A stretch of DNA of 64,000 nt, taken from Romanomermis culicivorax (Eukaryota; Nematoda; Enoplea; Mermithida; Mermithidae). The notes under the pieces were generated by a model. That model ran no database searches, had not been told where the DNA came from, and saw nothing but the letters and a program-made list of their open reading frames with translations. Of the stretch, positions 1 to 33,607 are shown one piece after another (the first letter of the stretch is position 1; each line of letters opens with the position of its first letter). The position numbers were made by a program, and so were the translations under genes. The stretch is from contig CAWUHX010000128.1 in the NCBI GenBank assembly GCA_963922205.1, forward strand, positions 124,001 through 188,000, given 5' to 3'.

Positions 1-443
1 CCTAAATGGCGTTGGGGGCCTAACCTGGCAATTGGTGGCTATAGAGAGGTCTATAGTTGGTTCTCTGGAGTTGTCCTTGGGGTCTTGCTGTAGGGGTAAT
101 GGACAACGCTGCCAGGCTAGGTGCGACAATCCCCGAGTCCTGCTCAGTGAGAGTGGGGGACAGGGTCACCCGTAAAATGACCTAAATTATGGGACCCGAT
201 TATGAACCAGACAGCCCCTTTTAGCCCGAACCTGAGAGGTGGAGGCCCTACTTATCTGTGGAAACCTTGGGAAACCAACTCAGGAAGGATTTCCCAACAA
301 ATACCCACAAATAACAATAATCCCCTGAGAAGACTCACCTAGTCCTGTTTCTCAAGCGATTACGACGCAACGGGCGGCGGGTCCCTGGATGCTTTCGGTC
401 TTCTGGCACTGGGAGCGAGGGGTACGATCCTCAAACGTCCTAG
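1..443 (-). repeat. Partial third copy of the retroelement LTR, cut by window edge and gap
   Basis: This stretch matches the internal part of both full LTRs, beginning at the position equivalent to 1,244 and running to the assembly gap. It differs mainly by single-base length changes in short homopolymers (an extra G in a GGGG run near 104, an extra G near 155, a missing A near 303). Such changes can be real or can be uncorrected read errors at a contig end. It belongs either to a second element copy to the left or to an assembly duplication across the gap. Confidence 0.9.
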
Positions 444-543
444 NNNNNNNNNNNNNNNNNNNNNNNNNNNNNNNNNNNNNNNNNNNNNNNNNNNNNNNNN
501 NNNNNNNNNNNNNNNNNNNNNNNNNNNNNNNNNNNNNNNNNNN
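444..543. other. Assembly gap of exactly 100 N
   Basis: One hundred N in a row is a conventional placeholder for a gap of unknown size. The sequence to its left is LTR and the sequence to its right is unrelated AT-rich DNA, so the real gap should contain at least the rest of that LTR copy. Confidence 0.99.
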
Positions 544-1052
544 GAATTAATTTTATTCAAATGTTGATAATCTGAAATTTCTGAATTAGCTCCGCATTTA
601 TCATTTTTTGTACTGTGAATATTCTGACTTAGTTTTTGCTCAGATATTCCATTTTACATTTTTTCTTAAGGATTTCAAAATTTTGGTTTTTAACTAACAA
701 GTTCTGGCAATTTTCAATTTCGAATCTTGAATTCCTGATGAATCTTGTTTCGATTCTGGATCTTTCCTTTATAGTCTCTTCTTTTCAAATGCTTGTAACA
801 CAAAAATGCTGAAAGCAGGTACGCATGCAGATTTTCGTGTCGAGAGAATTATTAAAACGTTGCTTACTGTATGTTGGAATCGAATAACGGGCGACGGTAA
901 ACTGTGACTAAACTCGACAACTCTTAAAAATGTTTTCCGTCCACTGGGGCCAGAAATGGACAAAAAAATTTCTCACGGCTAGGAAATATTCGCTCTGGGC
1001 AGAGAAAGCTAAGCAAATAGGCAGGGATGCGCCAGATTTTTGAGATTTCAAC
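544..1052. other. AT-rich host flank left of the retroelement
   Basis: Ordinary AT-rich DNA between the gap and the retroelement. A 64-codon minus-strand frame (769-963) is open, but I recognise nothing in it and see no convincing splice context. A short EFSHSL-type peptide in it recurs in an open frame near 47.5 kb, which hints at a shared repeat or exon family. The last four bases (CAAC) are the left target-site duplication of the retroelement. Confidence 0.6.
1049..1052. repeat. Left 4-bp target-site duplication CAAC
   Basis: CAAC directly precedes the TGTCAC terminus. The identical CAAC follows the other terminus at 17,261-17,264. A 4-bp duplication is within the usual 4-6 bp for Ty3/gypsy integrases. 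Confidence 0.85.
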
Positions 1053-2502
1053 TGTCACATTTTATGCCATCCATGTCACGTGTATGACATGTGGATTTGG
1101 AAGAGCTGGGGAGGTTTGGGTATCTCATCAGGTGATACCGTGTTTTAGACGTCACATTGATGGTGAACCATATCAGATTGATCCTATTACAGTGAGTAAT
1201 AGGCTGTGACTCCTGATGGATACTGGCATTTTCCCCAGGATTCCCTAAATGGCGTTGGGGGCCTAACCTGGCAATTGGTGGCTATAGAGAGGTCTATAGT
1301 TGGTTCTCTGGAGTTGTCCTTGGGGTCTTGCTGTAGGGTAATGGACAACGCTGCCAGGCTAGGTGCGACAATCCCCGAGTCCTACTCAGTGAGAGTGGGG
1401 ACAGGGTCACCCGTAAAATGACCTAAATTATGGGACCCGATTATGAACCAGACAGCCCCTTTTAGCCCGAACCTGAGAGGTGGAGGCCCTACTTATCTGT
1501 GGAAACCTTGGGAAACCAACTCAGGAAGGATTTCCCAACAAATAACCCACAAATAACAATAATCCCCTGAGAAGACTCACCTAGTCCTGTTTCTCAAGCG
1601 ATTACGACGCAACGGGCGGCGGGTCCCTGGATGCTTTCGGTCTTCTGGCACTGGGAGCGAGGGGTACGATCCTCAAACGTCCTAGGCGGCGAGCGGCGGC
1701 GAGCGGGAGGGAGCGGGAGTGAGCGGGAGGCGAAACTCCAACGTTTAATTCACGAACCGGGGCGGTCGGACACCTGGCACTGATGGGCAGCGGGGTACGG
1801 TAGGCGGTGAGCGGCGGACGCAGTAAGTAACGCAAAAATATGCAAATTTATTTAGGATAATAGGCGGCGGACGCAGTCGAGTATATAAAAATATGTAAAT
1901 TAAGAAGGGCGGCGGACGCGAAGTGACAACTGGACGAAAAGCTTGGTGAACCCAAGAATGAGCGAAAAACTAAAGAAACATGTCCTTTTAAGGACATGTT
2001 TGGCTACAGCTGCAGCTTGGGCGGAGTTTCTCGGCGCTCGAGCTAACTTCTGCAGCTAGACGCGATGCAGAAGATGCCTATGAGCACATAGACATTTTTT
2101 CATTCACATGCGTTTAGCACTGAGGCCGGCTGCAGTGCCTATGCTAAGCATATGAACGTCTTTAGCTAAAACTTCTTAGCTAGTCGTTTTGCGTAACAAA
2201 AACGACGCTAATTTTTGATGATAAGAGGTGCGTGAGCGCACCAAAAATAGCCATGTGCTCGTGGAGCACGACTGGCGGAAGTTTTTAGCTAAAGGGCCTA
2301 CTGTAGCCCGCGTTTGTAAAGAAATAAAAATACAACAAAACGAAACATAGAAATGCATAAAAATATAAAAACGAACGTAAAATGCATGTGTAAAAATGAA
2401 ATAAACAAAAGCATGATCGGGTAATAAACAAAACATGAAAAATAACAAAATGTCGGCATGATCGGGATCACGTGACGTTGGAGAATTGAGCGGCACGTGA
2501 CA
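1053..2502 (-). repeat. 3' LTR of the retroelement
   Basis: In the element's orientation this is the downstream LTR. It matches the 15,810-17,260 copy almost base for base. I found a one-base A-run indel near 2,378 and six substitutions, all within the first ~55 bases (1,061-1,107). It contains a GC-rich block of GAGCGG/GAGCGGG-type repeats at 1,684-1,830 and three CACGTG palindromes close to its ends. An AATAAA on the element strand (1,852 to 1,847) could be its poly(A) signal. Confidence 0.95.
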
Positions 2503-3021: not shown

Positions 3022-6000
3022 TTACGGGTCGGGGACCTCTGCATCAAGATGTGGGTCAATCAGATTCGGTGTAAAGTCCCGGCTTATTGATGGATACAAT
3101 AAGGGTGCCGAATCCGTTACCTGTGAAGTGGGAGGTGTATCCTCTGCTTCACTTGGTTGTTCAGGGGACACGTAAAGTCGAAGCTGGTTGACATGTACAG
3201 TGTCTTCCTGATCCATCTCGAGACGAAGTGTGACATTGGGATATGCCACACTTGTTACAAGGTAGGGTCCATCGTAGATGGGCAGCAATTTAGGAGTGAG
3301 TCCACGTTTGCTGGAGGTGCGCAGTTTGAGCACCTGGTCCCCTACTTTGTACGAGACATCATGTGCCCTCCGGTCGTACGACCGTGCATAGGCTTCCTGT
3401 GCTTTCTCAATCCGACTCTGGATTAAGGTTAACGCATTCGTGAAATGACGTTTGACCTCCATATCATATGAGGAAACATTAATGATATGGGCCGGAGGGT
3501 TGAATGAGAGCGCGGCGTCAACAGGGAGCATGGGTGTGCGACCGTACATGAGTTCAAAGGGCGAGTACCCTGTTGACTCATTCATGCTGATATTGACGGC
3601 AAACACAGCGTATGGTAGGTGTTCATCCCAATCAGTATGTCCTTGATGAACATACATACGTAGCCGTGTGGCTAGCGTCTGATTAGCTCTTTCCACTTCG
3701 CCGTTGGTCATCGGGTGATAGGCGGTAGAGTGGATTTTCTTCGTCGCGCAGATCGCAGTGATTTCAGTCATCAGTTTTGATGTGAAATCAGTGCCACGAT
3801 CTGACTGAAGGATCTGCGGTGCCCCGTGCCGGCAGACAATTTGCGTTACAAACAGCCGGGCTATGGTGTTCGCAGTAATGTCCGGAGTGGCGAAAGCCTC
3901 GACCCATTTCGTAAAGTAGTCGATAAAGACTACGATGAAACGGTTGCCAGCTTCGCTAGTGGTCATTGGTCCCATGCAGTCGACACCTACCCGGTGAAAC
4001 GGTCCCGTGATGGTGATAGGTTTCAGGGTCGCAGTGGTTTTCTGTCGAGCGGGCTTATTCCGTTGGCAAAGATCACACCGCTGACAGAAGGACTTGACAT
4101 CCCGACTGAGGGAGGGCCAGTGGTATCTGCGAGCAATGAGCCGCGCAGTACGTTTAGCACCGAAATGTCCAGCTAAGATGTCATCGTGATGGGCCCGGAT
4201 AATGGTAGTAACCATGGATCTGGGTATGACGATCTTATTGGACTCGCCTGTCCATTTCTGAAGGACGTTATCCAACAGATGGTAGCCTCGCACATCATTC
4301 TGGTCGCCCAGAGGCTTAAGAGAGCGAATGATGTCGGCTAATTCCGGATCCTCCAGCTGAGCAGCGAAAAGGTCGGGGTGCTGCGCACCGACGGATATCT
4401 CGGCATAAGACTCTGATCGTACCGGGCGCTCCGCGCCAACAGTGATCGGTGCTGAATTACTTGAACGCGCCAGGTGCTGCACACCATCGGTCAAGGTCCT
4501 TGATCTCGCCAGGTGCTGCGCACCATCGGTGATCATCATAACGTGCCCCTCAGGTCTGTAAAGGGGAGTATCATCAATACTCTGACCGGTGAGGGAGTTA
4601 GGATCCGGCAGGCGTGATAATGCGTCAGCATTACCATTAGACTGACCTTTTCGCGGCCGAATTGTCAGTTTGAATTCGGCGAGCGCGAGTCCCCACCGAG
4701 CGATCCGAGCAGAGGGGTTAGGCTTCTCCAACACTGCTTTGACCGCGGTATGGTCAGTCTGAACGACCACCTCGTGCTGGAAGAGGTATGGTCGAAAGTG
4801 CTTGACGAAATGGACAACAGCGAGAGTCTCCAGTTCTGTAATGGAGTAGTTCTTCTCGGCCGCTGTTAACCCTCGGCTGGCGTACGCGACAGGATGGTCG
4901 TATCCATTTTCGTCTAACTGGCTAAGAACCGCTCCTATCCCCGAAATACTCGCATCAGTTTGAAGGATAAAGGATTTCGAAAAGTCCGGATGGCGCAGGA
5001 TAGGAGGGTTGGTCAGCAGGCGGCGGAGTTCATCGAACGCCTCCTGCTGAGGTTTTGACCACTGGAAAGTAGTTTCCTTCCGTAAGAGCTTGGTTAGTGG
5101 CTCGCTGAGCCGGGCACAACCAGGGATGAAACGCCTGTAGTAAGACACGAGGCCTAGGAAGGACTTGATGTCTTTGGCGTTTTGTGGAATGGGTAGGTTT
5201 TGGACGGCGGCCAGCTTGGCTTGGTCAGGTTCTAGGCCGCTCTGTGAGATGCGATAGCCTAGGTACTCTACCTCCGAGTGCGAAAATTTGCACTTGCTCA
5301 GTCTGAGCTTCATTCCACCCCGGCGAAGACGGGCGAACACATCTGCCAGGCGCTCAAGCATTTGGGTGTGAGAGTTCCCGAACACCAAAATGTCGTCGAG
5401 ATAAGTCAGAACCGTGCGCCATTGGATTCCAGTAAGGAGGAGGTCCATAAGGCGTTGAAATGTCCCTGGCGCGTTGCATAAACCGAAAGGCAAATAATTG
5501 AATTCGAATAATCCAATAGGCGTATTAAAAGCCGTCTTTTCCTTATCGGCCTCGGCAATCGGGATTGACCAATAAGCGTTAGCCTGGTCAAGGGTAGTGA
5601 AATACTTCATACCCTTGAGTGTGTCGAGGATGTCATCTATCCGTGGGAGAGGGTAGACATCCTTTTTCGTGACCTCGTTAAGACCACGAAAGTCAACACA
5701 CATACGGTGAGAACCGTTTTTCTTGCGCACCAGGACAGTATTAGTAGCCCACGGAGACGTGCTGGGCCGAATAATACCTTTCTCCTGGAGCGCCTTGACC
5801 TCCTGCATGATGAGATCCTTTTCCTTAGGTGAGGACCGGTAAGGAAAACGGCGGACTGGGCGGGCATCACCCGTGCTGATTTCGTGCTGGACGAGATCAG
5901 TGGAACCTGTGTCCTTTTCATCAAGAGCATAAAGGTCGGTGTATGCAACCAGCAGGTCGAGTAAGGCTGCCCGGTCCCGAGGGGAGATGTCCGGTGAGAT

Positions 6001-9000
6001 TACAGCATTGGCCTCGACCCACTGACGATCGAGGACGGTGTCTGAGTCGACCGGTGATTCCCGTGAGGGCTCACAATGCATTTGCACATGACCGATGGTC
6101 GTGTGTGGGTAGAGAACCACGGAATGAGTACTCGGGTTGACTACCTGAAGCGGTATGTGACCGTTGGTCACGGTACTGACGCTTCCAGCAAAATATACGT
6201 GTCGTTGAGACCCGGTGAGGTGCTTCGGAAAGAAGGCCACCTCAGGCACGTTCGTATAGATTGGTGGGACAGGGACAGTGAATCGTGTCAGTGAGCGAGG
6301 CTCTAGAATCACCAAGTCCTTCAGGGGCAAAGCGCCGCGGGCAGAAGGTGGGCTGTGGATGAGACCGTCACAGGGGATTCTACTCTCTTTGAACTGGAGG
6401 AAAGATTTCTCCCAGTTCAAACTGACACAATTGAACCGGCCGAGGAAGTTGGTTCCTAGGACCAGTTCAGCTGAACAGTTCTCCTGTATTTGGACCTGAA
6501 TCCGTTCAGAGACATCAGCCACTGTAACTGTGATGTAGGCTGCTCCTAGCAGTGGGATCGGGGACCCGTTGGCTGCGATAGGGCGTGCCCTGGTTGGTGA
6601 TAGTGACAAGTTGGGCAGCTGGGCCGCTAACTTGTGGTCCAAGAGTGAGAAAACAGCTCCTGTGTCGACCAGTGCCTTGGCTTCTACCCAGTTGTTGAGG
6701 AGAACTTTGATATGGGGTGTCCGAATATCATTTGGGTAAAAAGCCGTGACCACATGACCGGAATCAGGTGTGGTGGCACCACTAACATGTTTGGTCTTAC
6801 CGGACCGCTTTGGAATCGGCAGTCCCGTACGACGTAGGAGGCCTACTAGAGCGTATCCGACGGAGGGTTCCGGGTCATTCAGAAGGGTGGACTCATCCTG
6901 TACTGTTAGTATGTGGTCTGAGTGATCCTTCGGACTCTGAGTAGCTCCTAGTGATTCAACCTCGGTGTCCGATAGCGGAGGCGCGTTTGGCACGGGTGAT
7001 GTCGGAGCATCTGAATCACTTGGCTCACGGTATCGGCCCTTCTCTAGCGTTACTGGAGAGGTTCCAGGCGGAGGTCGAGGGCAACCTGACCCGTGCAAGG
7101 TCGACAGATGACGACTTGCCCGTCTAGAAGAGGCCCGGGATCCCCTAGTTGACCCACGTGATGAGGCAACTGAGGAGGCCCGTGAGTGTGGCCGAGAGAT
7201 GGACGAAGCCCTGGACCGCGATCGTGATCCCGACCTGTGTGAGTTTCGCGAGAGAGCACGGGTGTTCTCCCACCAGGGGTCGATCTGGTCAATCTCCGGC
7301 GTGGTCAGCAGGAGGGGTAATTCTACCGCGTCCAGCCGACAAACATTACGTTGGTAGTCAAACATAATGTTCTTGAACTGTTCTAAGAAGTCCAGTCCGA
7401 GTATGAGGTCAACAGGTGCCCAGAAGGGAGACGTAGTCTTGCACACATGGAGATGTACATCGATCCGTGTGTTCGGCTGGCGGTTTCCGGGCAACATGAT
7501 TTCATATGGTCCCGAAAGGATGGTATGAACGGCTTTACCATTGATGCTCATCAATGGGTTAAAGTCGTGATGTTGCTGGAACGCCATGACCGCCTTCGGA
7601 CTTTCTTTAGCCAAGGCCTTATGAAGGCGTTGGCTAATGATAGTACGTGGGCAACCCGTGTCAAGGAAAGCAGGAGTTTCCTTGGTGTCCAGCAGCACGA
7701 CAAAGCACGGTGTGATTCGGTCAAGCTGGGAGGGTACATCGTTTTGCACGTAGTGAAAACCGACCCAGCGTTGGACTTTGCGGTAAAGACCCAACGGGGA
7801 GAAACGGCTAACAAACCTGACCTGTTTGCTCCGCAGACGGTAGCTGAGATAATAAGATACACCAAGATAGGCAAGGTATCCGGCACCGATCAGCACTGTC
7901 AGGGTAATTAGGATGTTAAAGATCAACTGGACCGGCCCGCTCAGGACAGCATGCAAGCCCTGGGCGAGGGTGTGCTCTTGACCCGTAATAACATGGTTTG
8001 CTGCCAAACCGACACCTTCCAGAGAGGCCTTGATGTCGGTTCCTACCCCTGCAAAGGCCTGGTAGATGGCGTCTGGTTGCAGGGATAGACCAGCGGTAAA
8101 GTTCACCAGCCGGTTGAGTACCGCTTCAATTTGCTCAGTCTTGTAAACGTACTGTTTAAAGAAGGCAAAGTTTGAAGGGGTCATCGCCAACTGGTCATGG
8201 AAGAGCGCCGGTGCCTCAAAGTGAGTGATGTTGAAGCGCTGCTTCCAGAAGAGTTCCAGTGGGATGTGGCTCACATGGACCGCGCCAGACTCAGTAAACC
8301 AGCCCGAGCGATTTCGGAAAATCCCCGTAAAGTGGTGATGACACGGCACAATTGGGCTTGATTTAATGAGATCCGGACCACCGGGGGTGGCGAAGTAGAT
8401 GGTGCCGCCAACCTGCACAGGTAAGTACTTGTAGCAAACGTTCCCCACTCGGTACGAATGGTAAACGTAGGTGGCGTTGACCTTCTGACACGGCCATATT
8501 GTCAGCGCATCGCCTGTGAATTCCGCCGTCAGGTCATTCCTCTGGAGGAATGCCCGGGCACCCAGGGTAGGGTCGAAGCGAAGCAACTGCCAAGTCAGAT
8601 CAAGATAGCGTTGAGCGTGAGAGCAAAGCTCAAGCCACGTGAACCGGAAACCGTTAATTTCCGACTCCTTGATCTGCTGAGCCAGATAGTTCAGCTTGGC
8701 ATTGACAGGATCGGGACGGCTGTCCGTTGCCACTCTGAACATGTTTTGGGTCAAATTGTATCTCCCGTGGATGCGAAGGAGAAGACCCTGATCCGTCCGG
8801 ACTGTGGTGGAACGTAGTTCTGGGCACAGTTGGAAGACACGGGAGTTTCCCGGGATCTTGAGGGCAACCTGCAGATCATCGATGATGACGTGGTTCCCTG
8901 ACATGGACGCAGTGTAATTTCCCTTGGGGTGATAATGACACCGCGCCGTGAAGTTTTGTGCAGGCCAGACAATGACCCCGTCTAGGGTAGTGCACTGGCC

Positions 9001-12000
9001 TGCAGTGGGACTGCATCCACCTACATCGCCTAAGGTGCTCAGGGCCGTAGTGCCGTCCCACGAAGCGACTTGTCCCTCCTCGATGAAGAGGTTAGTCACT
9101 GTCTTGCAGACGTCGCTGCAGCACCATTCGTACATCACTTCCAATGTTTGGTTTGTGCTATAAAAGCCAGGGCGAATGCCGACAAGTTTTTGTGAACCAA
9201 ACATTTTAGTGCGATGTGCTAGCGTGCATGCCGCAGGCGCTAAGTGCTGAGTGGTGATGACGTCTGCAGTGATGCCCCTAGAGCCGAAGAAACCAGTGTT
9301 GGTGCAGACTTTGCGGGAGCGCAATGTGCATTTCCACGCTGTGGTTGTAATCGGGTCTGAGCTAGGGACATACACCGTAACATTCATGCGCCGCGGGCTC
9401 CATGAAGATTGCGGTGGTTTACACTCTACACGCTGGGGTAACTCAAGTGGATGTCCGCTTCTTGAGAGACCGCAAAATTGATACTGAGCCGCCGGTGCTG
9501 ACAAACTCACCCCTAGAAACAGTGATGCTACCAAGGTCAATTTTATTGTCAAAAACAACTGTACAAACGTAATTTGTAAGTGTTCACTCAATTTCACAAA
9601 TCTGGCCTGAGGGGCAGTGTCAGATTTCTTCTTCGTCGCTGTCGGACGAGATTGGTTCCTGGTCGGGGAAATCGAGGACCAATTCACCGCTGGGGAGGAT
9701 CTCCCGAAGGGTACCGACTTTCGGCGACCGTGGGTTGACTGCCGTTGGGAACGGTGATGTTTCGACAATGCTGACATCCTCATTAACTGGACGTAAGGTC
9801 TCGTCGACGGCCATGGGTTCGACGACGGGCGACTTGGTCGCGGCGGTCGGAGATGTCGTTTGGGCTGGTGCCGGCGATGTGGTCTGGGCTGTTGCCGGCG
9901 GTGTAGGATCATTTGCGGGTTCCTTGGCCGGGGGCGAGGAAGCAGTAATGTCCATCTTAGTTGGCGATGTCGCGGCAACAGGTGGTGCTGCTGCCGGTGA
10001 TGTAGCGGCGGCAGCAGGCAGGAGGATCCGACTGGCCTGTTCGACTGCTCGGCGGACGGCGTCGACTGAAGGCGAGGATGGCTCCCCGTCCAATAAGAAC
10101 TTCTCGACGGGCGAGATGGTGATAGTCCCATTGGCAATGAACTCGAGTGCCCGGCGGGCGACGTCGGGTCGTAATAGGCGCATCGAGACGGGTGCTGCAA
10201 GCACGACGTCGGCGGCCGTGAGCGCTTCGACATTTGATGGCTCGTTGAGGAGAGTCCACGGCAAATGCGGGTATTTCTTGGCCAGGTCGACTGACCAGAT
10301 GGCCAACATCGCGTCTTGGACGGGCGATGGCGCTGTGAACAAGAAATCAATAGAGTCGTGGACTGGGAGAGATTCCTGGTTCCTACTCTAGGATCACCTG
10401 AAGAAGAAGGTAGTATACCTGACAAATTCATGGGCTCGACCTGGTCGAGGACTTCCGTAGCCGAATCCGTGGGGATCGAAGGCGGTGGTCCTGGAGGGAC
10501 GATGCGGGCCGGTGGCGCCGAAGACGTCGTATTTGCGGCTGGAGCTGGCTCGGCAGTCTTGAGTTTAGGAATGCGATACGATGCGAGGATGTTAGCGTGG
10601 CCAACAAACTGCGGTGTCGTCGAGGGGTCCAGAGTGACCGGCATCGCATACTTTGGTGGTGGTGGTGGCAGCGGTATGTCCGATACGTTCATCGGTACGG
10701 GTACCTGGGCTGCTTGGACCACTGAAAATTCAATACTGATTACGCAGACAGGATAACACTGTTGTGAAGAATCTGTCAGGTGTTCAGCAAGTGCCTCATC
10801 ATCCAGGTCAAGAGGATCTGGATGGGGAGGGCCATCGGTAGCCCCAACGGCGTTGTTGCGGCGTATGGGCTGCCGATAATGGTTTCCTGTCCCGTTGGGA
10901 GGGTGATAACCATTTCTTTGATGATACACATTTGTCCCCTGGGAAGAATAACCAGTATCTTGGTAGACATTCTCACCCGTGTTTGCCGGATTGCGCTGCG
11001 GACAGGCAGTTGATCGGTGCACTCGCACTTGACGACAATGAGGGCATGGCCTATCACATCGGTCCGTGGGGTGGGCACGTGTACGGCAAAAATAACAGCG
11101 ACCACCGTTAGCGGCGTTGTTATCGGGGGCGGCACCGGTGGGACGCTGGGCCCGGCAGTCGGCGTCGCTATGTGTACACAGTCCGTGGAAGGAGCACGTT
11201 TGAAGGTGTGCTCCCGACGAGCGTCGCCCGGCGGACTGATTTGGTGTCGACGGCTGTGGAGGCGGCGTCTGTTGGATTGGCGCGGGTGCACGTTGCTGGG
11301 CCGTGAGCTTCACTACGTGGGCCGTGAGCCTGGCCATTTCCTGTTTCAAGCGGCGAACCTCATCGGCGGAGGATGACGACGTTGGAGCGTTGCTCTGACG
11401 ACCGTTTGCGCTTCTGTTAGGCATATCGGGATTATATCCGGCGTGTTTAGGTTCTGAAGAGAAAACGGCGTTAGATGGAGCAGTGTACCGGATCTCGTCC
11501 CGAAAGATTTGGGATTCTGCGTAACAGGCTGCCTTGAGTGTCTCTTCAAGAGTCGTGAACTCCCTAAACTTGATACTATCTCGGAGGACCGGCTTCAGTC
11601 CCCGCAGAAAGATAGGTTTGATGATAGAATCTCGGACATCCGTCGCGAGATCTGGATACGCTACCCTGGATAGTCTCTTGAGGTGCTCAAGGTAGACTAT
11701 CGCGGACTCTGTCGGCTTCTGCAGTCGATCTTGGATCAGCTGCTGATGCAGATCAGAGTCGCGCCCTACCGGAAAATCTCTCCGTAGAAAAGCCGTAAAC
11801 TCTTCGTAGCGGGTAGGTATTGGAGTGCTGCTGCTAAAGTCCCGGTAGGAGGCGAGAGCAGGACCCGTGAGGCATGACTCCAGAAAGGCGATTTTATACG
11901 CATGATCCGTTTCGCTTACACCCTGGAGTGTAAAGAAACGAGTAAGATGCGACATAAAATCGGTGATAGACTCACCAAAAGCACCGGAGAAGGTGGGAGG

Positions 12001-12138
12001 GGCCATAAAGCTGGACACGGGAGGGTGCCTCCGACCATTCATGGCCTCTAACTTTTGGTTGAGGGGTCCAAGAGCATTCTCAAATGCTGCCTGGACTTTG
12101 TTCTCGATCTGTGAAGGGAGATCAGTTTCCGACTTCAT
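3022..12138 (-). CDS. 3,038-codon polyprotein frame: Gag, envelope-like, twin protease, RT, RNase H, integrase
   Basis: A single frame is open from an ATG at 12,138 to TAA at 3,022. Approximate residue order: Gag core 40-220; zinc knuckles 314-378; proline-rich stretch 520-580; a low-complexity Arg/Ser/Pro stretch 583-840 that is probably not the real protein, because another frame codes better there; signal-peptide-like segment 850-885; glycosylated ectodomain to 1,400; transmembrane helix about 1,402-1,430; first retropepsin-like domain with DTG at 1,490; Arg-Ser-rich linker 1,620-1,680; second retropepsin-like domain with DTG at 1,823; RT with YLDD at 2,245; RNase H 2,380-2,500; integrase zinc finger 2,652-2,692; DDE core 2,720-2,815; GPY/F-type tail 2,935-2,990. 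Whether one protein is really made across all of this is doubtful. A frame change around residues 580-840 and processing by the element's proteases are likelier. Confidence 0.9.
3490..4235 (-). CDS. Integrase with HHCC zinc finger, DDE core and GPY/F-type tail
   Basis: The zinc-binding module (about residues 2,652-2,692) has paired histidines in an AGHFGAKRT context and the FCQRCDLC cysteine pair. The catalytic core has Asp in VGVDCMGPM (about 2,723), Asp in LQSDRGTDF (about 2,780) and Glu in GEVERAN, with the D,D(35)E spacing intact. The C-terminal part contains YDGPYLV, the GPY/F module of many Ty3/gypsy integrases. It would join the double-stranded DNA to host DNA and make the 4-bp CAAC duplication seen here. 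Confidence 0.95.
4600..5960 (-). CDS. pol: Reverse transcriptase and RNase H
   Basis: RT occupies about residues 2,060-2,290. It shows the conserved [10 protein letters not shown] stretch, the [15 protein letters not shown] catalytic region (first Asp) and the YLDD box near 2,245, whose two aspartates bind the metal ions. RNase H follows at about 2,380-2,500 with [15 protein letters not shown] and QTDHTAVK motifs matching the Ty3 RNase H active site. Together they would copy the packaged RNA into DNA in the particle, primed by a tRNA at the site next to the 5' LTR. No stops or missing catalytic residues were seen. Confidence 0.96.
6400..6765 (-). CDS. Second retropepsin-like aspartic protease domain (standard pol position)
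   Basis: Residues about 1,790-1,915. The motif [11 protein letters not shown] at about 1,822 and the second signature [11 protein letters not shown] at about 1,891 give a complete retropepsin pattern immediately before RT, where Ty3/gypsy proteases normally lie. Between the two protease-like domains (7,090-7,270) is a linker of repeated Arg-Ser and Ser-Arg-Ala-Ser units, expected to be disordered and possibly nucleic-acid binding or phosphorylated. Two complete DTG domains in one element are unusual. Confidence 0.85.
7340..7740 (-). CDS. First retropepsin-like aspartic protease domain, directly after the envelope tail
   Basis: Residues about 1,465-1,600 of the long frame. A hydrophobic strand leads to FLDTG at about 1,490, followed by a second signature, LILGLDFL, at about 1,577, as in single-domain retropepsins that work as dimers. 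It starts about 40 residues after the transmembrane helix, so in a type I topology it would face the cytoplasm. It is separated from the second protease-like domain by an Arg-Ser repeat linker. It may be an active protease, a Gag/Env-specific maturation enzyme, or a degenerate dimer partner. The catalytic Asp-Thr-Gly is intact. Confidence 0.8.
7800..9596 (-). CDS. env: Envelope-like type I membrane glycoprotein placed between gag and pol
   Basis: This stretch of the long frame begins with a strongly hydrophobic signal-peptide-like segment ending in small residues (about residues 850-885). A ~515-residue ectodomain rich in cysteine follows, with nine N-glycosylation sequons by my count (NVT, NQT, NFT, NYT, NLT, NAT, NRS, NIT, NFT). 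A helical stretch then leads to one transmembrane helix (about 1,402-1,430) and a basic tail. This is the layout of a viral fusion glycoprotein. I see no clear furin site. Family assignment is open; capture from an RNA-virus glycoprotein, as known for some BEL and Ty3 elements, is inference. No methionine sits at the start of the signal segment, so expression needs a frameshift, splicing or internal start. The downstream frame runs on without a stop. Confidence 0.8.
9620..10387 (-). CDS. Second-frame segment overlapping the polyprotein, probable Gag C-terminal region
   Basis: The frame shifted by -1 relative to gag is open from just after a TAG (10,390 to 10,388) to a TGA at 9,620. Its first half looks like a folded, helical domain and its second half is a Thr/Ser/Pro/Ala-rich tail ending in an acidic run before the stop. 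In the same stretch the long frame reads as Arg/Ser/Pro/His low complexity, the usual look of an out-of-frame GC-rich region. I infer that this frame is the true continuation of Gag. It could be reached by programmed -1 frameshifting or, if this copy carries a one-base indel between about 10,345 and 10,387, directly. The envelope-pol frame is +1 to it. I recognise no domain. Confidence 0.7.
10345..12138 (-). CDS. gag: Gag region (capsid and nucleocapsid-like)
   Basis: The first ~597 codons of the long frame. The N-terminal part has the helical, aromatic-rich pattern of Ty3-type Gag cores (a [10 protein letters not shown] stretch, then a YLEHLKRL stretch). Three Cys/His clusters follow: an atypical one at about 314-327, a classical CX2CX4HX4C at 347-360, and CX2CX5HX4C at 364-378. 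Zinc knuckles of this kind bind element RNA for packaging. A proline-rich tail leads into the overlap, where the reading frame appears to change. Gag would form the particle shell in the cytoplasm. Confidence 0.88.
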
Positions 12139-13994
12139 GTCCGAGGGTTCGTTTTCCCGTAAGGTGGTTAGAACAGACGTCCTTGCCCGTGAAGCAATTA
12201 AGTCAAATTGAATAGAGAGCGGCTCACTGGTCTGTACAGGCTGGGTACTGAGACGGCAGGAACGACGGGGTGTCTCTATTGTGTAAAATGAAAGTGAGTA
12301 CTACTTTTGAATTCGCGGCGAAAGAGCGCGTGAATTCGGAAAAACGCGTGTGCGACGGCGTTTAAGACGTAAATTGACTTAGCTTAAGACTAGCGACCAC
12401 GGAAAGGGAGCTAGAATGGAATAGGATTATAAGATGTAAGATCAGAGTACATCAGGGTGACGCAGAAGGGAATTTATCTGGTCGCCCGTGATGGACAGAG
12501 GCTTGGCCTGAGATATGGGGAATCGATCCCGACCAGAATGTAGAGTTTGGGGCCTGGACCCGGCAGTTAGAATAGGTGAAGAGGACAGAAGATCATGTAG
12601 AAAGAAGAGGAGAGGCGGTTTTTCCTGCCGAGAAATAAGGTGACGGATAAACCCGCTCAGGAGGGATTTTTCCTGGAAGTTCGACCGCTGTACTAGTTTA
12701 CAAACCTTGGGGCGAGGCGGACTCGTAGCCGGCAAGATCCTACTCACCAGGAGTAGCGCATAAAGTGGCATAAGGTAGAAAGGATGGGGTCAACTGAAAA
12801 TGAACTTAAAAGGGAGCAATAAATAGGGACAAAACTAATTTACAAACCCAGTTACGCAAAGGGGTCGCGCAGTTACGCAACGGGCCTCACTCGCCAGGAG
12901 CGATTGCGATCTCTGCATAGTGAGATGGACTATACAGGAGGTTCCGTGCTGGACGACATTCGCAAATAACTTACAGCCGTGTTCGAAACGGGAGCCCGCA
13001 TTCCGAACAGAACGGACACTCTCCAGGAGTATTATACACAGCTGGTGGCCGGGTTTGCCGATCACTGAGATGAAGTGAGGTTCGCAGGTCACACAGTAGA
13101 AGAGGGAAGGAGCACGGGTACCAAGGGTGCTATTCTGACACACTCAGTCAGTTAAAATGAAATCTCTGGATGTTTTGAGGGCGCACCCGAAAACATCTAA
13201 GGGATCACGGGTACAAGGTGTCCCTGATTGAATATGAGTGTAAAGTATGTATCGAGGCGTACTCAATACCTTCGCTGAGGCGGACTCAACGGTGCCTTAT
13301 TATTTACATGACTAATAAAGGGTAGACCGCGGAGGCGGACTCTGGGTCAGTGGCGACTCTAGCGCGGGCATCGTTAAGCCAGTTAACGAAGGCGTTCGAG
13401 TGAGAGAAATATGACAGGGGGTCCTATACACTCTAGGCCCAACCGGAGGCTGTGCCGCGGTCCCTTGGGAACCACTACGGTGGGGACACTAAAGAAGATC
13501 TATGTATGACAGCTCGATGAGATGAAAGAGAATGGGTGAATTTAGATAAGAAATTTACAAGAAGATTGCCGAACCCTTGCAGACGTCAGACACCGGCAGT
13601 ACCGACTGCAAATGCCTATCGTCTGCACGAGTCAAGCAACCAACCCAGCTGAGGCCGAGTGTAACTCGTTCAAACCTACAGTTAAAGCTTGAAAACAGCC
13701 ACATACTGATCAACAGTGCCGCTACCCGGGCGGACAACCTGATCATTACGTAGGCTAGTGAGCATCTCAGGTGGTGTATGTATGTGGACTGATGTTTCCC
13801 AGGCATCAGCCCCCAGACACACACAACCCTTGAACAAGAGAGGTAGGTGATAGGACCATGCGCCAGCGACCACCTACAACTCAAGTGGAATACTCATAGG
13901 GCCGACAGTAACCTGGTGCGGACGTCAGAAGGTAGGGGTATGGACCAACACATAACCTTGGTGCTGACTGCAGGTGCCTGGGATAAGAGTATTC

Positions 13995-14620
13995 AAGTAT
14001 CACGTCGCAGTTGCAGACGCCAGGGGTGAGTGCCTAAGGCCAGCAAACCCCTGCAGTAGCACGTAATGTTACCGTTGCAGACGTCAGAAATAGGATCATG
14101 TAACCTCAATTCCTGCTGCGAGAGCATGATACGTTGTCATTGCTGACGCCAGCAATAGGGCCCTGAAGCCAGCTATCGGTGTACAGCAACACGTGATGGT
14201 GCCGTTGCTGACGTCAAAAGGTGGAACCGAGGGTCTGATACCTTTGGTCAATGACATGAGATGCAGTTGTTGCAGACGTCAGATGTGGCACCCGTAAGAC
14301 CTGCACATCTTCGAATAGTGACACGGTGCGTCACCATTGCTGACGTCACAGATGGGGTGCAGAGAACCAGCCGAACCTGTCGCAACAACGTTGGCTTCAC
14401 CTGTTGCAGACATCAGAAGTCATTACTGTTGGAGTGTTAACTTGAACAACAACACGTAGTGTCGGTTGCTGACGTCAGGAGTAGAACCCGGAGGGCTACC
14501 CACCCCTTAAAGCAACAGCAAGTGAAGCGGCTGTTGCAGACGTTAGTGGTTGCATCCGTGAGGCTGAACCACGCAACAACAACAACCCGTAACGTTGTTG
14601 TTGCTGACGTCAAAGAACAT
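13995..14620. promoter_or_regulatory. Regular array of TGACGTCA (CRE/ATF-type) sites in the leader
   Basis: GACGTC or a one-base variant occurs at 14,016, 14,080, 14,145, 14,209, 14,275, 14,341, 14,409, 14,470, 14,539 and 14,605, a spacing of 61-69 bp (mostly 64-66). From 14,209 onward the context alternates strictly between GCTGACGTC and GCAGACGTC, giving a ~131-bp higher-order unit. Two outlying copies lie at 13,582 and 13,921. TGACGTCA is the known palindrome for CREB/ATF bZIP factors. That it works as an enhancer here is inference. Confidence 0.8.
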
Positions 14621-14750
14621 GACCCGTAAAGTCTATGGTCTAGATGCAACAACCGGAAAGTAGAAGAAACAGACCTTACAGTAAGTAGAAATGAAGAAGA
14701 GAGAAACTTATGTAAGGGTGTCATACTGTAGCGGTGGCATCCGAAAAACA

Positions 14751-14754
<4 letters not shown>

Positions 14755-14802
<48 letters not shown>
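14755..14802. repeat. 48-nt poly-T run (poly-A on the element strand)
   Basis: An uninterrupted run of 48 T. On the element strand it is an encoded poly(A) inside the leader. I see no AATAAA just upstream of it on that strand, so capture of a polyadenylated cDNA is not supported. Length may be unreliable because of homopolymer sequencing error. Confidence 0.9.
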
Positions 14803-14803
<1 letters not shown>

Positions 14804-15469
14804 ACACCGCTCAGTTGACCGAGAAAGGAAAAGGGAAAGGAAAATAACCGAAGACGGGGAATACGGGATTTGGGCATACGCGTGTTAAAGGTGTAAACAG
14901 TCGGTGTAAAATTGTTTTTGGGGCCGGAAAAGTGAGCAATTCCGACAGTTTCCGCCGACATACAAAAAGACTGTACACAATTAACAAATCGCAGCCACGT
15001 ATGACGTCCAGAATCATACGTGGAGGGTGTACGGTATCATGGGGTCACGGACCACCAACAGTCAGGAGAGGCCGTAAACCCCTACAGCTGTGATACCAGT
15101 ACCCGCGTATGGGTATACTGTAGTTACAGTACGGGAATGGGCACAGGCGTACTGTAATGGCACCCACCCGGAGGGCTACAGTATACCACCCAGGATTAAA
15201 GGAAGGGGGGGGGAATGAGGGAAAAGGAACAGATAAGGGAATTTACAACACAGATTTAAGTATGCAGAATGTACAGAATTAATCAGAGGAGAAATACAGA
15301 ATACTCGATATATAACTCAACTCTGGGACAAATAACACGACTCTGGGGATAAATAACTCGACTCAGAGGGGATTTATTACTCACAGGGGATAATACACAC
15401 GCATGAGATAATTATTTACACATATAGATCATATTTAGATCACTCGTAAGGGCAAATCCCGTCTTACAG

Positions 15470-15770
15470 TAATTAAATTTGATGTTCAGGGATAAATTCC
15501 CGACCTACAGTAATAACTCTCGGTGGCACGGGAAAAATTTTCCGACTACAGTAATAATACGCGACGTGAGGTGGGGGTATCCGACCTACAGGAGCGGTAA
15601 TCCGAAATAAGGGGCATTCCCGACCCATTAGGCAGTAAACCCGAATTTGGGGGGTCTCCGACTTATTGGATGGCTAGTGCCCAATTTTAAGGGGGCTTGT
15701 CCGACTTAAAATGGGAGTTGACCCGACCTGGGGGTAGATCCGACCCAAGGGTAAAGTTTTACACTTAAGG
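15470..15770. repeat. Field of degenerate CCGAC-type repeats beside the 5' LTR
   Basis: TCCGAC, CCCGAC, TCCGAA or CCCGAA followed by CTACAGTAA, CCATTAGG, TTATTGG or similar recurs about ten times at 15-40 bp spacing. In the element RNA this lies just downstream of the primer-binding site, a usual place for dimerisation or packaging signals. That function is inference. Confidence 0.65.
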
Positions 15771-15791
15771 GCGAGTGCCAGACTTAAGGTC

Positions 15792-15809
15792 GATTTTCCA
15801 GCCTCGCCA
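15792..15809 (-). promoter_or_regulatory. Primer-binding-site candidate
   Basis: Immediately inside the 5' LTR the element strand reads TGGCGAGGCTGGAAAATC. It starts with TGG, the complement of the CCA end of a tRNA, with no spacer after the LTR terminus. The priming tRNA would end in ...CTCGCCA, with G as discriminator base; I could not assign it. Confidence 0.65.
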
Positions 15810-17260
15810 TGTCACATATTGCGCCATCCATGTCACGTGTATGACATGGGGGTTTGGGAGAGCTGGGGAGGTTTGGGTATCTCATCAGGTGATACCGTGT
15901 TTTAGACGTCACATTGATGGTGAACCATATCAGATTGATCCTATTACAGTGAGTAATAGGCTGTGACTCCTGATGGATACTGGCATTTTCCCCAGGATTC
16001 CCTAAATGGCGTTGGGGGCCTAACCTGGCAATTGGTGGCTATAGAGAGGTCTATAGTTGGTTCTCTGGAGTTGTCCTTGGGGTCTTGCTGTAGGGTAATG
16101 GACAACGCTGCCAGGCTAGGTGCGACAATCCCCGAGTCCTACTCAGTGAGAGTGGGGACAGGGTCACCCGTAAAATGACCTAAATTATGGGACCCGATTA
16201 TGAACCAGACAGCCCCTTTTAGCCCGAACCTGAGAGGTGGAGGCCCTACTTATCTGTGGAAACCTTGGGAAACCAACTCAGGAAGGATTTCCCAACAAAT
16301 AACCCACAAATAACAATAATCCCCTGAGAAGACTCACCTAGTCCTGTTTCTCAAGCGATTACGACGCAACGGGCGGCGGGTCCCTGGATGCTTTCGGTCT
16401 TCTGGCACTGGGAGCGAGGGGTACGATCCTCAAACGTCCTAGGCGGCGAGCGGCGGCGAGCGGGAGGGAGCGGGAGTGAGCGGGAGGCGAAACTCCAACG
16501 TTTAATTCACGAACCGGGGCGGTCGGACACCTGGCACTGATGGGCAGCGGGGTACGGTAGGCGGTGAGCGGCGGACGCAGTAAGTAACGCAAAAATATGC
16601 AAATTTATTTAGGATAATAGGCGGCGGACGCAGTCGAGTATATAAAAATATGTAAATTAAGAAGGGCGGCGGACGCGAAGTGACAACTGGACGAAAAGCT
16701 TGGTGAACCCAAGAATGAGCGAAAAACTAAAGAAACATGTCCTTTTAAGGACATGTTTGGCTACAGCTGCAGCTTGGGCGGAGTTTCTCGGCGCTCGAGC
16801 TAACTTCTGCAGCTAGACGCGATGCAGAAGATGCCTATGAGCACATAGACATTTTTTCATTCACATGCGTTTAGCACTGAGGCCGGCTGCAGTGCCTATG
16901 CTAAGCATATGAACGTCTTTAGCTAAAACTTCTTAGCTAGTCGTTTTGCGTAACAAAAACGACGCTAATTTTTGATGATAAGAGGTGCGTGAGCGCACCA
17001 AAAATAGCCATGTGCTCGTGGAGCACGACTGGCGGAAGTTTTTAGCTAAAGGGCCTACTGTAGCCCGCGTTTGTAAAGAAATAAAAATACAACAAAACGA
17101 AACATAGAAATGCATAAAAATATAAAAACGAACGTAAAAATGCATGTGTAAAAATGAAATAAACAAAAGCATGATCGGGTAATAAACAAAACATGAAAAA
17201 TAACAAAATGTCGGCATGATCGGGATCACGTGACGTTGGAGAATTGAGCGGCACGTGACA
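15810..17260 (-). repeat. 5' LTR of the retroelement
   Basis: Upstream LTR in the element's orientation, 1,451 bp, nearly identical to 1,053-2,502. Near its U3 start (high-coordinate end) are two CACGTG palindromes within 40 bp. A GC-rich GAGCGG repeat block lies at 16,441-16,580. No convincing TATAAA lies on the element strand; a TATATAAAA at about 16,639 lies on the opposite strand and could drive antisense transcription. Confidence 0.95.
16604..16609 (-). promoter_or_regulatory. Poly(A) signal candidate AATAAA in the LTR
   Basis: On the element strand the LTR reads CTAAATAAATTTG. The same hexamer is at 1,852-1,847 in the 3' LTR, where it would be used. Confidence 0.45.
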
Positions 17261-17264
17261 CAAC
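17261..17264. repeat. Right 4-bp target-site duplication CAAC
   Basis: Partner of the CAAC at 1,049-1,052. It fixes the element boundary at 17,260. Confidence 0.85.
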
Positions 17265-31680: not shown

Positions 31681-32224
31681 CCCGAGGCTCTTCCAAATGA
31701 AGTTGTTAGTTAAAATAGTATGAAGGGTCCTAAATGAATATAGTGTTTATACTTTCTGGTGAAATTGTGTGGTGGTAAACGCATTAAGTCCATTGGCTGG
31801 CGCGCCGCTCCAGGCTCAATTCTTGAAGTAAGCAGGATTTTTCTGGATAAAAGCCGCGTCTGAGTTACTTAATGAATAATGATGATTATTAATGTTATAA
31901 CCGGTGCGAAGCGCCGGAAAATTTTGAGATTTTTACCTCCTAAAATGTACCAAAATGCGTCTTTTCAATATGGAAACCCCAAATTTTTCTTCCACATTTG
32001 TGGAAAGACCTCAAAAATTTTTTGCACATTCCAGACTTTTTTCCACATTATAGTGCAAATGTGGAAAAAACAGTGATTCGACGTTGCGCAAAACGGTTAT
32101 GTGCTTTGTGCACAGATCGCCAGCTTCCTGATAAAAATTTTTCTTGGAAAAGAAAGAATTTTTGGCATATTCATCAAATCGAAAAAACTAGAGATTATCG
32201 ATCAGACCAGATCGAGTTTGCTGC

Positions 32225-33607
32225 TTTACCTGTAAGAGGTCCGACCACTGGGGGGAGGGTAAACCCAATATTTTGGGGGTGGGGGTCCCAACATTTCCAA
32301 AATTTGGGGGGGAGGGGGTCAAAAAAACCTCAAAGAAGTCGAAAAAATTCCGAAAATTTGCCCAAAAAGGTCAAAAAAGCCACTTTTTTCCTCATTTTTT
32401 CCAATTTTTCCGAGTTTGGGGGGGGGGGGTTGGGTGTAGCAGCGTTTTTTTGTGCACTGACATTTGTGCCAATCGGCACAAGAGACCAACAAAATTTGTG
32501 CCAATGGCACAAAAAATTTTTTTCTACAAGGAACATATTGAAAACTCCGGAAAAGTTTCAGGCCAAAAGTTTGATAAAAATATCTCCATTTGAAGCTACT
32601 AACGGATTAATTTTTTGTAAAAATCATGCCCTATTTTTGATCTCTAATTTATTCTTTCAAATCTTCTAAAATTTGTCCTTCACATTTATTCATTATTTCC
32701 TCGTTCTCGACTAATTATATTTTGTATTGTAATTTTGTGTTCTTTTTCTACAGGTAATAAAATCTTTCATTCATTCATTCAACCTATTTTTCAGCAAACC
32801 ACGACAGTGAAATAAGAAAAAACTGCAAGAAAATAGTTCAAGGCGATTTAAAAAGAAATGGAATGCTGAGAAAATTTGAATAACTCTAGGATTGTTCAGG
32901 AAGTTCAAATTGATTCAATTTTTGAATGCGAATATTTATATAATGTAAAGACTAGAGAGAATAAAGTCTAAAATTGTGTAAATTTTCGGTCGAAACACTG
33001 TATTAACGATTTCTATTTTTCTATTAAAATCAATCAAACACAAAAATTAAGGATTTCAGTTCTAGAACTGAATCTGACTGAATGAACAGAGAATATTCAG
33101 AATTTTTTTTCATTCATTGGTCATTAACAGCCTGTAAAGTTTGCTGCAGCTTGCAACGATACTCTAATACACAATACACTGTTGGAAGAGAAATCGATCG
33201 CTTTCGGGTCTAATATACTTGTGGGAAATATTATATGCATTGAATCGGCGCGAAGCGCCGAAAATTTTTGGCATTTTCAGCGCCTAAAAACGTCTGAAAA
33301 TCTAGGAAATTTAATGTTTGACCAGCCAAAAATTTTGTGCCAATTGGCATTAACGCTCAAAATTTTTTGTGCCATTTTAAATATTTTTGTGCCAAAAACC
33401 ATGTTTTGGCACAAAACAAAAAAAAAATATTTTGGCACAGAACAAAAATTCGGCACAAAAAAACAAAACATGGTTCTTGGCACAAAAAAACACTGGGGTG
33501 TAGGGTTGACCAAGTTGGGGGCTGGGGTCCCGACATTTGGGTATAGGGTTCGACCAAGTTAGGGGTGGGGGTCCCCCCCTCAACCTCCCCCCCCAATTAC
33601 AGATATG
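32225..33607. mobile_element. Poly-G family element split by a GTGCCA-family insertion
   Basis: The left end TTTACCTGTAAGAGG and right end TTACAGATATG are family ends. The flanks TTTGCTGC and TTTGATGC form an 8-bp duplication with one mismatch. The insertion at 32,440-33,495 sits inside its G-rich right half. Confidence 0.75.
32440..33495. mobile_element. GTGCCA-family hAT-like element
   Basis: CAGCGTTTTTTTGTGC at the left and ...CACAAAAAAACACTG at the right, with the perfect 8-bp duplication GGGTGTAG (32,432-32,439 and 33,496-33,503). Its right 170 bp is a dense array of TTGTGCCA/TGGCACAA. It contains a CGGCGC..GCGCCG hairpin at about 33,247 and a retroposon-like tail at 32,650-32,785. Confidence 0.9.

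What the first reader, a model, noticed from the sequence alone, without database searches (positions are those of the whole stretch)
3022..12138. Retroelement with an envelope-like glycoprotein between gag and pol, in frame with pol
Seen: the long minus-strand frame holds zinc-knuckle gag, then a signal-peptide-like segment, a glycosylated Cys-rich ectodomain and a transmembrane helix, and then, with no stop, protease-like, RT, RNase H and integrase domains. Known: in Metaviridae and Retroviridae env normally lies after pol and is made from a spliced RNA. Inference: in a type I topology the pol domains would hang on the cytoplasmic side of a membrane-anchored protein, so this element might load its enzymes through an Env-Pol fusion rather than a Gag-Pol fusion.
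Basis: partly seen in the sequence, partly recalled or inferred. Interest (0 to 1): 0.92.

Follow-up and report, generated by a model that had tools for sequence, protein, structure and literature searches.

The report
Retroelement with envelope inside its polyprotein
This genome carries young copies of a virus-like jumping element whose cell-entry-type protein appears to be built into the middle of its main protein chain, between the shell proteins and the copying enzymes, instead of being a separate gene at the end.

Summary
Confirmed. A 16.2-kb Ty3-like LTR element lies on the minus strand, with LTRs 99.5% identical and a CAAC target duplication. One stop-free frame encodes Gag, a fusion glycoprotein (PF24664, E 3e-14), RT, RNase H and integrase, with two hydrophobic segments around Env and two tandem retropepsins. 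It is not a chimera: 38 of 39 other scored copies keep the same span across the Gag-Env junction. Three unnamed proteins of 2490-2797 aa show the same order in one chain. In the own genome, 19 of 20 examined glycoprotein loci have PR and RT downstream and none has pol upstream, within 1.5-kb flanks. Six independent insertions of a sister family have one intact 2472-codon Gag-Env-PR-RT-RH-IN frame. In the window family the Gag-Env linker is overprinted by a selected 229-codon ORF. Best reading: a membrane-threaded polyprotein, Gag and Pol cytosolic, Env lumenal. Main rival: Env-Pol from its own RNA. Single Gag-Pol-Env chains are known (Atlas virus); Gag-Env-Pol was not found in ten literature searches. 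Translation, processing and infectivity are untested.

The parts
1053..2502 (-). 3' LTR, TG...CA ends
   Evidence: 99.5% identical to the other LTR over 1452 aligned columns, 6 mismatches, 1 gap opening; ends read
15810..17260 (-). 5' LTR
1049..1052 (.). target-site duplication CAAC (partner 17261-17264)
   Evidence: read from the flanks printed
15792..15809 (-). likely primer-binding site, begins TGG right after the 5' LTR; tRNA not identified
   Evidence: inference
12139..15791 (-). long leader; 38 ATGs counted over 12139-15809; best 5' splice-like site of the interior at 12748
   Evidence: splice weights recalled
3022..12138 (-). Gag-Env-PR-PR-RT-RH-IN open frame, 3038 aa
   Evidence: pieces
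11524..11970 (-). Gag capsid domain
   Evidence: PF19259, E 2e-7
11002..11097 (-). two zinc knuckles
   Evidence: motif scan
9589..10383 (-). Gag-Env linker in the polyprotein frame: open, amino acids not conserved
9620..10309 (-). overprinted 229-codon ORF in the -1 frame; ATG and TGA present in 40 of 40 sequences compared
9502..9558 (-). signal-peptide-like segment of Env (aa 861-879)
7927..9501 (-). Env ectodomain; PF24664 match at 8272-8706
7870..7926 (-). Env transmembrane segment (aa 1405-1423)
7306..7713 (-). first retropepsin-like domain (DTG at aa 1493, LGLDFL at aa 1580)
6436..6705 (-). second retropepsin domain (DTG at aa 1825, LGTNFL at aa 1894)
   Evidence: PF13975, E 4e-11
5248..5730 (-). 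reverse transcriptase (YLDD at aa 2246)
   Evidence: PF00078 in two adjoining pieces; PDB matches
4672..5061 (-). RNase H
   Evidence: PF17919 and PF17917
3712..4227 (-). integrase H2C2 and core
   Evidence: PF17921 and PF00665

Best explanation
A recently active Ty3-like (Metaviridae-type) LTR element, one of a group that captured a mononegavirus-type, probably class III, fusion glycoprotein and carries it inside its polyprotein, between Gag and protease-Pol. Most likely one chain, Gag-linker-Env-PR-RT-RH-IN, is translated from full-length RNA. The internal signal peptide sends the Env ectodomain into the ER lumen and the transmembrane helix stops transfer, so Gag before it and the enzymes behind it both stay in the cytosol. 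The retropepsins next to the membrane then release the parts during assembly. The topology resembles the flavivirus polyprotein (recalled), without relation to it. In the window family the linker also encodes a separate 229-aa protein in the -1 frame. Shown: order, single frame, independent insertions, sequence kinship of Env, selection on the overprinted ORF. Inferred: class III fold, translation as one chain, topology, processing, infectivity.
For: Domain order and single frame in the window. Same order in one chain in 3 unnamed proteins of 2490, 2707 and 2797 aa; identity to the window 30.6-41.6% in env and 41.5-47.3% in RT-RH. Own genome: 68 scored PF24664 matches of 2320 candidates; 0 of 14 control genomes match. 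19 of 20 fetched loci have PR and RT downstream and 0 of 20 have pol upstream. Of 12 ten-kb loci, 12 show CA-Env-PR-RT-RH-IN; 6 have one frame ATG to TAA of 2472 codons, 100% identity in the visible 166-276 nt of the LTRs, and unrelated flanks. Among those six, synonymous changes exceed expectation in gag+linker (11 of 21, P 0.014), env (10 of 16, P 0.0035) and PR-IN (22 of 46, P 0.0035). Foldseek: Keturi virus glycoprotein E 1.3e-24, KSHV gB E 1.7e-17. Only two hydrophobic regions in the window ORF and in L021. In window, L021, L027 and L030 the nearest in-frame Met lies 40-132 aa before the signal core. The polyprotein frame is open across the overprinted stretch in 37 of 41 sequences.
Against: No RNA or protein data. 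In L029, P0009, P0010 and P0011 a Met lies 4-19 aa before the signal core, and L029 has a stop between Gag and Env. The linker's polyprotein-frame amino acids are not conserved (23 synonymous against 40 expected). Avoidance of stops there is only weakly supported: P 0.0185; 3 seen against 7.0 expected, P 0.077. The leader has 38 ATGs, so simple scanning to the gag ATG is doubtful. The Env model is poor overall (pLDDT 56, pTM 0.33) and TM-scores are about 0.2-0.4. Sequons are not enriched in P0010 and P0011, and P0009 has further hydrophobic stretches in its protease and near its end. 6 of 12 ten-kb loci are broken or shifted, and 8 of the 12 were chosen for long frames. L006 shows neither PR nor RT. 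Env, RT-RH and IN trees do not agree on one split.
Confidence: 0.7

Rival explanations
1. Env-Pol is made apart from Gag, from a spliced or otherwise subgenomic RNA: an Env-Pol fusion, with the Gag-Env linker read only in the -1 frame or not at all.
For: Best donor-like site of the interior in the leader at 12748 (recalled weights); Met 4-19 aa before the signal core in 4 of 8 sequences and a stop between Gag and Env in L029; linker amino acids of the polyprotein frame unconserved.
Against: Six intact insertions and three database proteins keep Gag and Env in one frame without a stop; the frame is open in 37 of 41 window-family sequences; nearest Met 40-132 aa before the signal core in 4 of 8. 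A pair of acceptor-like sites as at 10397 and 10332 occurs in 10% of shuffles.
Confidence: 0.2
2. The glycoprotein has no entry role and is kept for another reason, such as membrane anchoring of Gag or restriction of rival elements.
For: No infectivity data; no exogenous relative of this element was found.
Against: Excess of synonymous changes in env among six copies and 16 of 16 cysteines conserved across 29-42% identity show that the protein is kept, though not what for.
Confidence: 0.08
3. Single-copy chimera, assembly join or frame artefact.
For: A 100-N gap lies just outside the element (444-543); part of the ORF is not the selected frame.
Against: Paired LTRs and TSD; 38 of 39 other scored copies have exactly the same 1201-nt span across both frame changes; same order in other families.
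Confidence: 0.01

Closest known systems
Atlas virus and other nematode belpaoviruses (PMC9094657, passages seen)
   Same: LTR element with a single intact polyprotein that includes a captured RNA-virus glycoprotein
   Different: Order Gag-Pol-Env; BEL/Pao, not Ty3-like; class II phlebovirus-like Env
Anakin, mosquito Pao elements with chuvirus glycoprotein (PMC7642597, passages seen)
   Same: Glycoprotein from a negative-strand RNA virus of the same broad Pfam group (group by name, recalled)
   Different: BEL/Pao; the text places the Envs of Roo, Tas and Cer-7 downstream of the polyprotein; Anakin's own gene order is in a figure that I could not see
Lokiretroviruses (PMC9040795, passages seen)
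   Same: Env similar to Mononegavirales fusion glycoproteins
   Different: Dual RNase H, sister of retroviruses; env after pol by recollection, not checked
Ty3 and single-ORF Metaviridae such as Tf1 (Tf1 recalled)
   Same: Capsid, RT-RH and integrase of Ty3 type; Gag and Pol in one frame
   Different: No Env inside the polyprotein
Errantiviruses such as gypsy (recalled)
   Same: Ty3-type element with Env
   Different: Env after pol from spliced RNA; baculovirus F-type Env
Cer1 of C. elegans (PMC10309623, passages seen)
   Same: No stop between gag and pol in a Ty3-type element; spliced CERV protein with one exon in another frame
MDG1-group elements with sORF2 (PMC11952523, passages seen)
   Same: LTR element with a membrane fusogen-like protein in an unusual place
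   Different: A short separate ORF upstream of gag or downstream of pol, not an RNA-virus glycoprotein
TelKA of bdelloid rotifers (PMC5408684, passages seen)
   Same: Env taken from a negative-strand RNA virus
   Different: Paramyxovirus F type, as an additional ORF3

Membership tests
Metaviridae (Ty3-type) | Ty3-type RT-RNase H, with integrase after RT | tested here: met
   top PDB sequence matches 4ol8 (Ty3 RT by recall) and 7q5b, named Ty3-G Gag-Pol
Metaviridae (Ty3-type) | Paired LTRs, TG...CA ends, short TSD | tested here: met
   (TSD 4 bp)
Metaviridae (Ty3-type) | RT phylogeny inside Metaviridae | not tested
   no reference RT set at hand; only a four-sequence RT-RH tree
Errantivirus | env downstream of pol | tested here: not met
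   519 nt between the pol stop and the 3' LTR; env lies before PR
Lokiretrovirus / Retroviridae | Second (dual) RNase H domain | tested here: inconclusive
   only the Ty3-type RNase H region matched in Pfam at E 0.1; no structure made
Troyka (PMC12440569: abstract; first part of Results) | CG...CG LTR ends, 3-bp TSD, no envelope | tested here: not met
   TG...CA ends and 4-bp TSD; Env present
Class III fusion glycoprotein | Class III fold shared by rhabdovirus G and herpes gB | tested here: inconclusive
   Foldseek E-values strong, but model pLDDT 56 and low TM-scores; PF24664 above its cut-off
Belpaoviridae (Atlas, Anakin) | BEL/Pao-type RT | tested here: inconclusive
   Ty3-type capsid and RT-RH matches speak against it; no BEL/Pao profile was compared

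The most novel reading that the evidence does not exclude
A lineage of retroelements builds its virion from one membrane-threaded polyprotein, Gag in the cytosol, class III Env in the lumen, enzymes back in the cytosol, so that capsid, entry protein and enzymes are tied to the same membrane site and made in equal amounts until tail-side retropepsins cut them apart; one family has in addition evolved a new gene overprinted on the dispensable Gag-Env linker.
Probability: 0.55. Interest if true: 0.92.

Novelty: new variant of a known kind. Interest (0 to 1): 0.84.

Why it matters
Retroviruses and their relatives are taught as gag-pol-env with Env apart from Gag-Pol. A Gag-Env-Pol order kept in several families and in young copies would show that an entry protein can be captured into the middle of the polyprotein and stay there. 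It would give another way to set the ratio of structural, entry and enzymatic proteins, and a natural test case for how retroelements become viruses. The overprinted ORF is a clear case of a new gene in a freely evolving linker.

Tried and rejected
Copy-specific indels as the cause of the frame change near 10340 and 9620: rejected. One search lists 40 copies, one of them the window's own; 38 of the 39 others have the same 1201-nt span and one has 1200. One search lists 149 copies of the frame-b ORF including the window's own; by my count of its table 8 rows have an internal stop and 8 have an open frame other than 255 or 263 aa.

-1 ribosomal frameshift from Gag into frame b: judged unlikely. 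No X XXY YYZ heptamer was seen by eye in 10387-10330. Selection on frame b begins at ATG 10309, not upstream: 3 synonymous of 15 in 10387-10310, but 4 of 6 in 10309-10240 and 15 of 18 in 10239-10140. It is weaker further on (9 of 26 in 9939-9840, 6 of 16 in 9739-9680). The RNA fold there is only slightly better than shuffles (z -2.1).

Frame-b protein as a conserved Gag domain: no Pfam match up to E 10; best tblastn E 0.12 in 12 loci of other families. The first retropepsin was likewise not found in those 12 (best E 0.11).

Scans of viral contigs and genome contigs for env found no relative. A third protein search, from P0011, returned only P0011. ARAGORN and Rfam found nothing in the window.

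Limits of the counts: L055 was left out because of an upstream 1-nt gap. Half of the 40 fetched copies were picked by frame-b protein similarity, which may favour frame-b conservation; the 20 picked by DNA alone gave 14 sites in that stretch and no clear signal. P values are simple binomials on site-alleles with an assumed (112) or estimated (117) transition weight. Codon statistics also prefer another frame, weakly, at aa 281-440 and a few other places.

Full report
What is there. The finding lies in an LTR element of 16,208 bases on the minus strand. The two LTRs (1053-2502 and 15810-17260) match at 99.5% over 1452 columns, begin TG and end CA, and are flanked by the same four bases CAAC. 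So this is one real and young insertion. The 100-N assembly gap at 444-543 lies outside it. The reading frame 12138 to 3022 has 3038 codons. Searched in pieces, it shows a Ty3-type capsid, zinc knuckles, a Monjiviricetes fusion glycoprotein, retropepsin, RT, RNase H and integrase, in that order. Only 519 nt separate the end of pol from the 3' LTR, so there is no room for an env at the usual place.

Env. The ectodomain lies between the only two hydrophobic regions that pass the threshold in the frame. It matches PF24664 at 52.3 bits against a cut-off of 27 and, below cut-off, Borna virus G. AlphaFold2 on five sequences gave a weak model (pLDDT 56, pTM 0.33). Foldseek nevertheless ranks negative-strand virus glycoproteins first in the viral library (Keturi virus 1.3e-24, Beihai rhabdo-like virus 3 2.5e-23) and herpesvirus gB in the PDB (1.7e-17). 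TM-scores are low (about 0.2-0.4). This points to class III without proving it. All 16 cysteines of the window piece aa 880-1400 are conserved in the other three polyproteins and in P0008.

Two proteases. Directly behind the TM lies a retropepsin-like domain (DTG at aa 1493, LGLDFL at 1580) that Pfam sees only below cut-off (E 0.009). A profile of three relatives' proteases and the window's second one finds it at 31 bits, against a best of 8.4 in 500 shuffles. The ordinary retropepsin follows at aa 1812-1901. The first was not found in 12 loci of other families.

Relatives. A protein search with a 1690-aa piece, scored on its first 950 residues, returned three unnamed proteins of 2797, 2707 and 2490 aa whose precomputed Pfam lists the fusion glycoprotein, RT, RNase H and integrase in one chain. 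Pairwise searches with window pieces place their capsid region before Env and PR-RT-RH-IN after it in 3 of 3. Precomputed Pfam also lists an RRM in P0009 and a dUTPase in P0010; by position (dUTPase) and by reading these lie between Gag and Env. Identity to the window is 30.6-41.6% in env and 41.5-47.3% in RT-RH. The small env and IN trees group P0009 with P0011 (support 61 and 74), the RT-RH tree groups P0010 with P0011 (99), so I do not claim strict co-descent of the parts.

Own genome. The window lies in a 359-Mb, 595-contig assembly without a name. PF24664 gives 68 scored matches of 2320 candidates, and 0 of 14 control genomes match; the window's own copy is not among the 68, so the list is incomplete. 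I examined the 20 for which the call cut loci, with 1.5-kb flanks. In 19, PR and RT follow Env on the same strand; in none was pol found before it; L006 shows neither. I fetched ten-kb stretches around 12 of the 68, eight of them chosen for long open frames. All 12 have CA-Env-PR-RT-RH-IN. Six (L021-L026) have one frame from ATG to TAA of 2472 codons, 100% identity in the visible LTR parts (166-276 nt) and unrelated flanks in 15 of 15 pairs, so they are six independent young insertions. The other six are broken or shifted: a stop between CA and NC in L027, IN in another frame in L028 and L029, a stop between Gag and Env in L029, a stop near the end of env in L030, frame changes in L031, and an open frame in L032 that starts inside CA and ends inside IN. 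Among the six intact copies, synonymous changes exceed expectation in gag+linker, env and PR-IN.

The linker. In the window, codon statistics switch to the -1 frame between about 10340 and 9650 and then return. This is not damage to one copy. Of 39 other scored copies at 99-100% identity, 38 have the same 1201-nt span. Of 41 sequences aligned (window included), the polyprotein frame is open in 37 and frame b in 41. A 24-nt insertion in 14 of them keeps both frames. In 40 sequences (L055 left out) frame b shows 76 synonymous changes of 139, against 41 expected (P 9e-10); the polyprotein frame shows 23 against 40, with 3 stops against 7.0 expected (P 0.08). Among 62 changes shared by two or more copies, none makes a stop in the polyprotein frame. 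Frame-b constraint starts at ATG 10309, present in 40 of 40, as is the TGA at 9622. So a 229-codon gene is printed over a freely evolving Gag-Env linker. Permuting the synonymous codons of frame b leaves the polyprotein frame open in 1.85% of 20,000 trials, which hints that it is kept open. Three linkers read from other families are in frame with Env and low in complexity (L021, L027, L030; the L027 frame has one stop before NC), and no frame-b homologue was found in 12 loci.

How it probably works. A full-length RNA is translated into one chain. The internal signal peptide and the TM put only the Env ectodomain into the lumen. Gag and the enzymes stay on the cytosolic face, where the retropepsins can dimerise and cut. 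This follows from the anatomy and from general knowledge of membrane-protein topology; it is not shown. The distance of 40-132 aa to the nearest Met before the signal core in window, L021, L027 and L030 favours it. The nearby Met in L029, P0009, P0010 and P0011 leaves room for separate Env-Pol synthesis in those families. How the -1 ORF is reached (splicing, reinitiation, leaky scanning) is open. Acceptor-like sites at 10397 and 10332 precede its ATG, but two such sites occur in 10% of shuffled stretches.

Compared with what is known. Atlas virus in hookworm has a single Gag-Pol-Env polyprotein with a class II Env (PMC9094657, passages). Anakin elements carry chuvirus glycoproteins in Pao elements (PMC7642597, passages). 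A follow-up found no clear capture by Gypsy or Copia elements (PMC10084718, passages). Lokiretroviruses carry Mononegavirales-like Envs (PMC9040795, passages). Bdelloid TelKA has a paramyxovirus-type Env (PMC5408684, passages). I found no description of Env between Gag and Pol in ten searches of the open library (listings, and passages of some papers). Subscription journals and repeat databases were not searched, so an unremarked repeat entry with this order may exist.

Verdict. It is a new variant of a known kind: a Ty3-like element with a captured, probably class III Env in a place where I found none described.

Noticed in passing
G000:C128:117386-118586, about 16 kb to the left of the window's copy; window 1-543: A near-identical neighbour copy (1 mismatch in 1201 nt) lies next to this one, with an LTR fragment and a 100-N gap between them; a tandem pair or an assembly duplication.
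   Followed up: partly
G000:C180:404, 8769, 17134 and C25:197813, 206184: Glycoprotein matches start 8365 nt apart (C180, twice) and 8371 nt apart (C25), which suggests tandem arrays of related elements.
   Followed up: no
window 14755-14802: A 48-nt T run, that is poly(A) in the sense of the element, inside the leader; may mark an old insertion.
   Followed up: no
window 14053-14614: Six diverged 36-nt repeats with a GACGT-type motif in the leader; may be packaging or regulatory repeats.
   Followed up: no
P0009 and P0010, between Gag and Env: An RRM (P0009) and a dUTPase (P0010) by precomputed Pfam sit in the Gag-Env linker by position, which seems to be a place where extra modules are gained.
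   Followed up: partly
G000:C54:597199-597984: One copy of the frame-b ORF lies in a 2462-aa open frame, unlike the 255 or 263 aa of nearly all others.
   Followed up: no
window 31998-32669 plus: A 223-aa ORF without any Pfam match up to E 10.
   Followed up: partly
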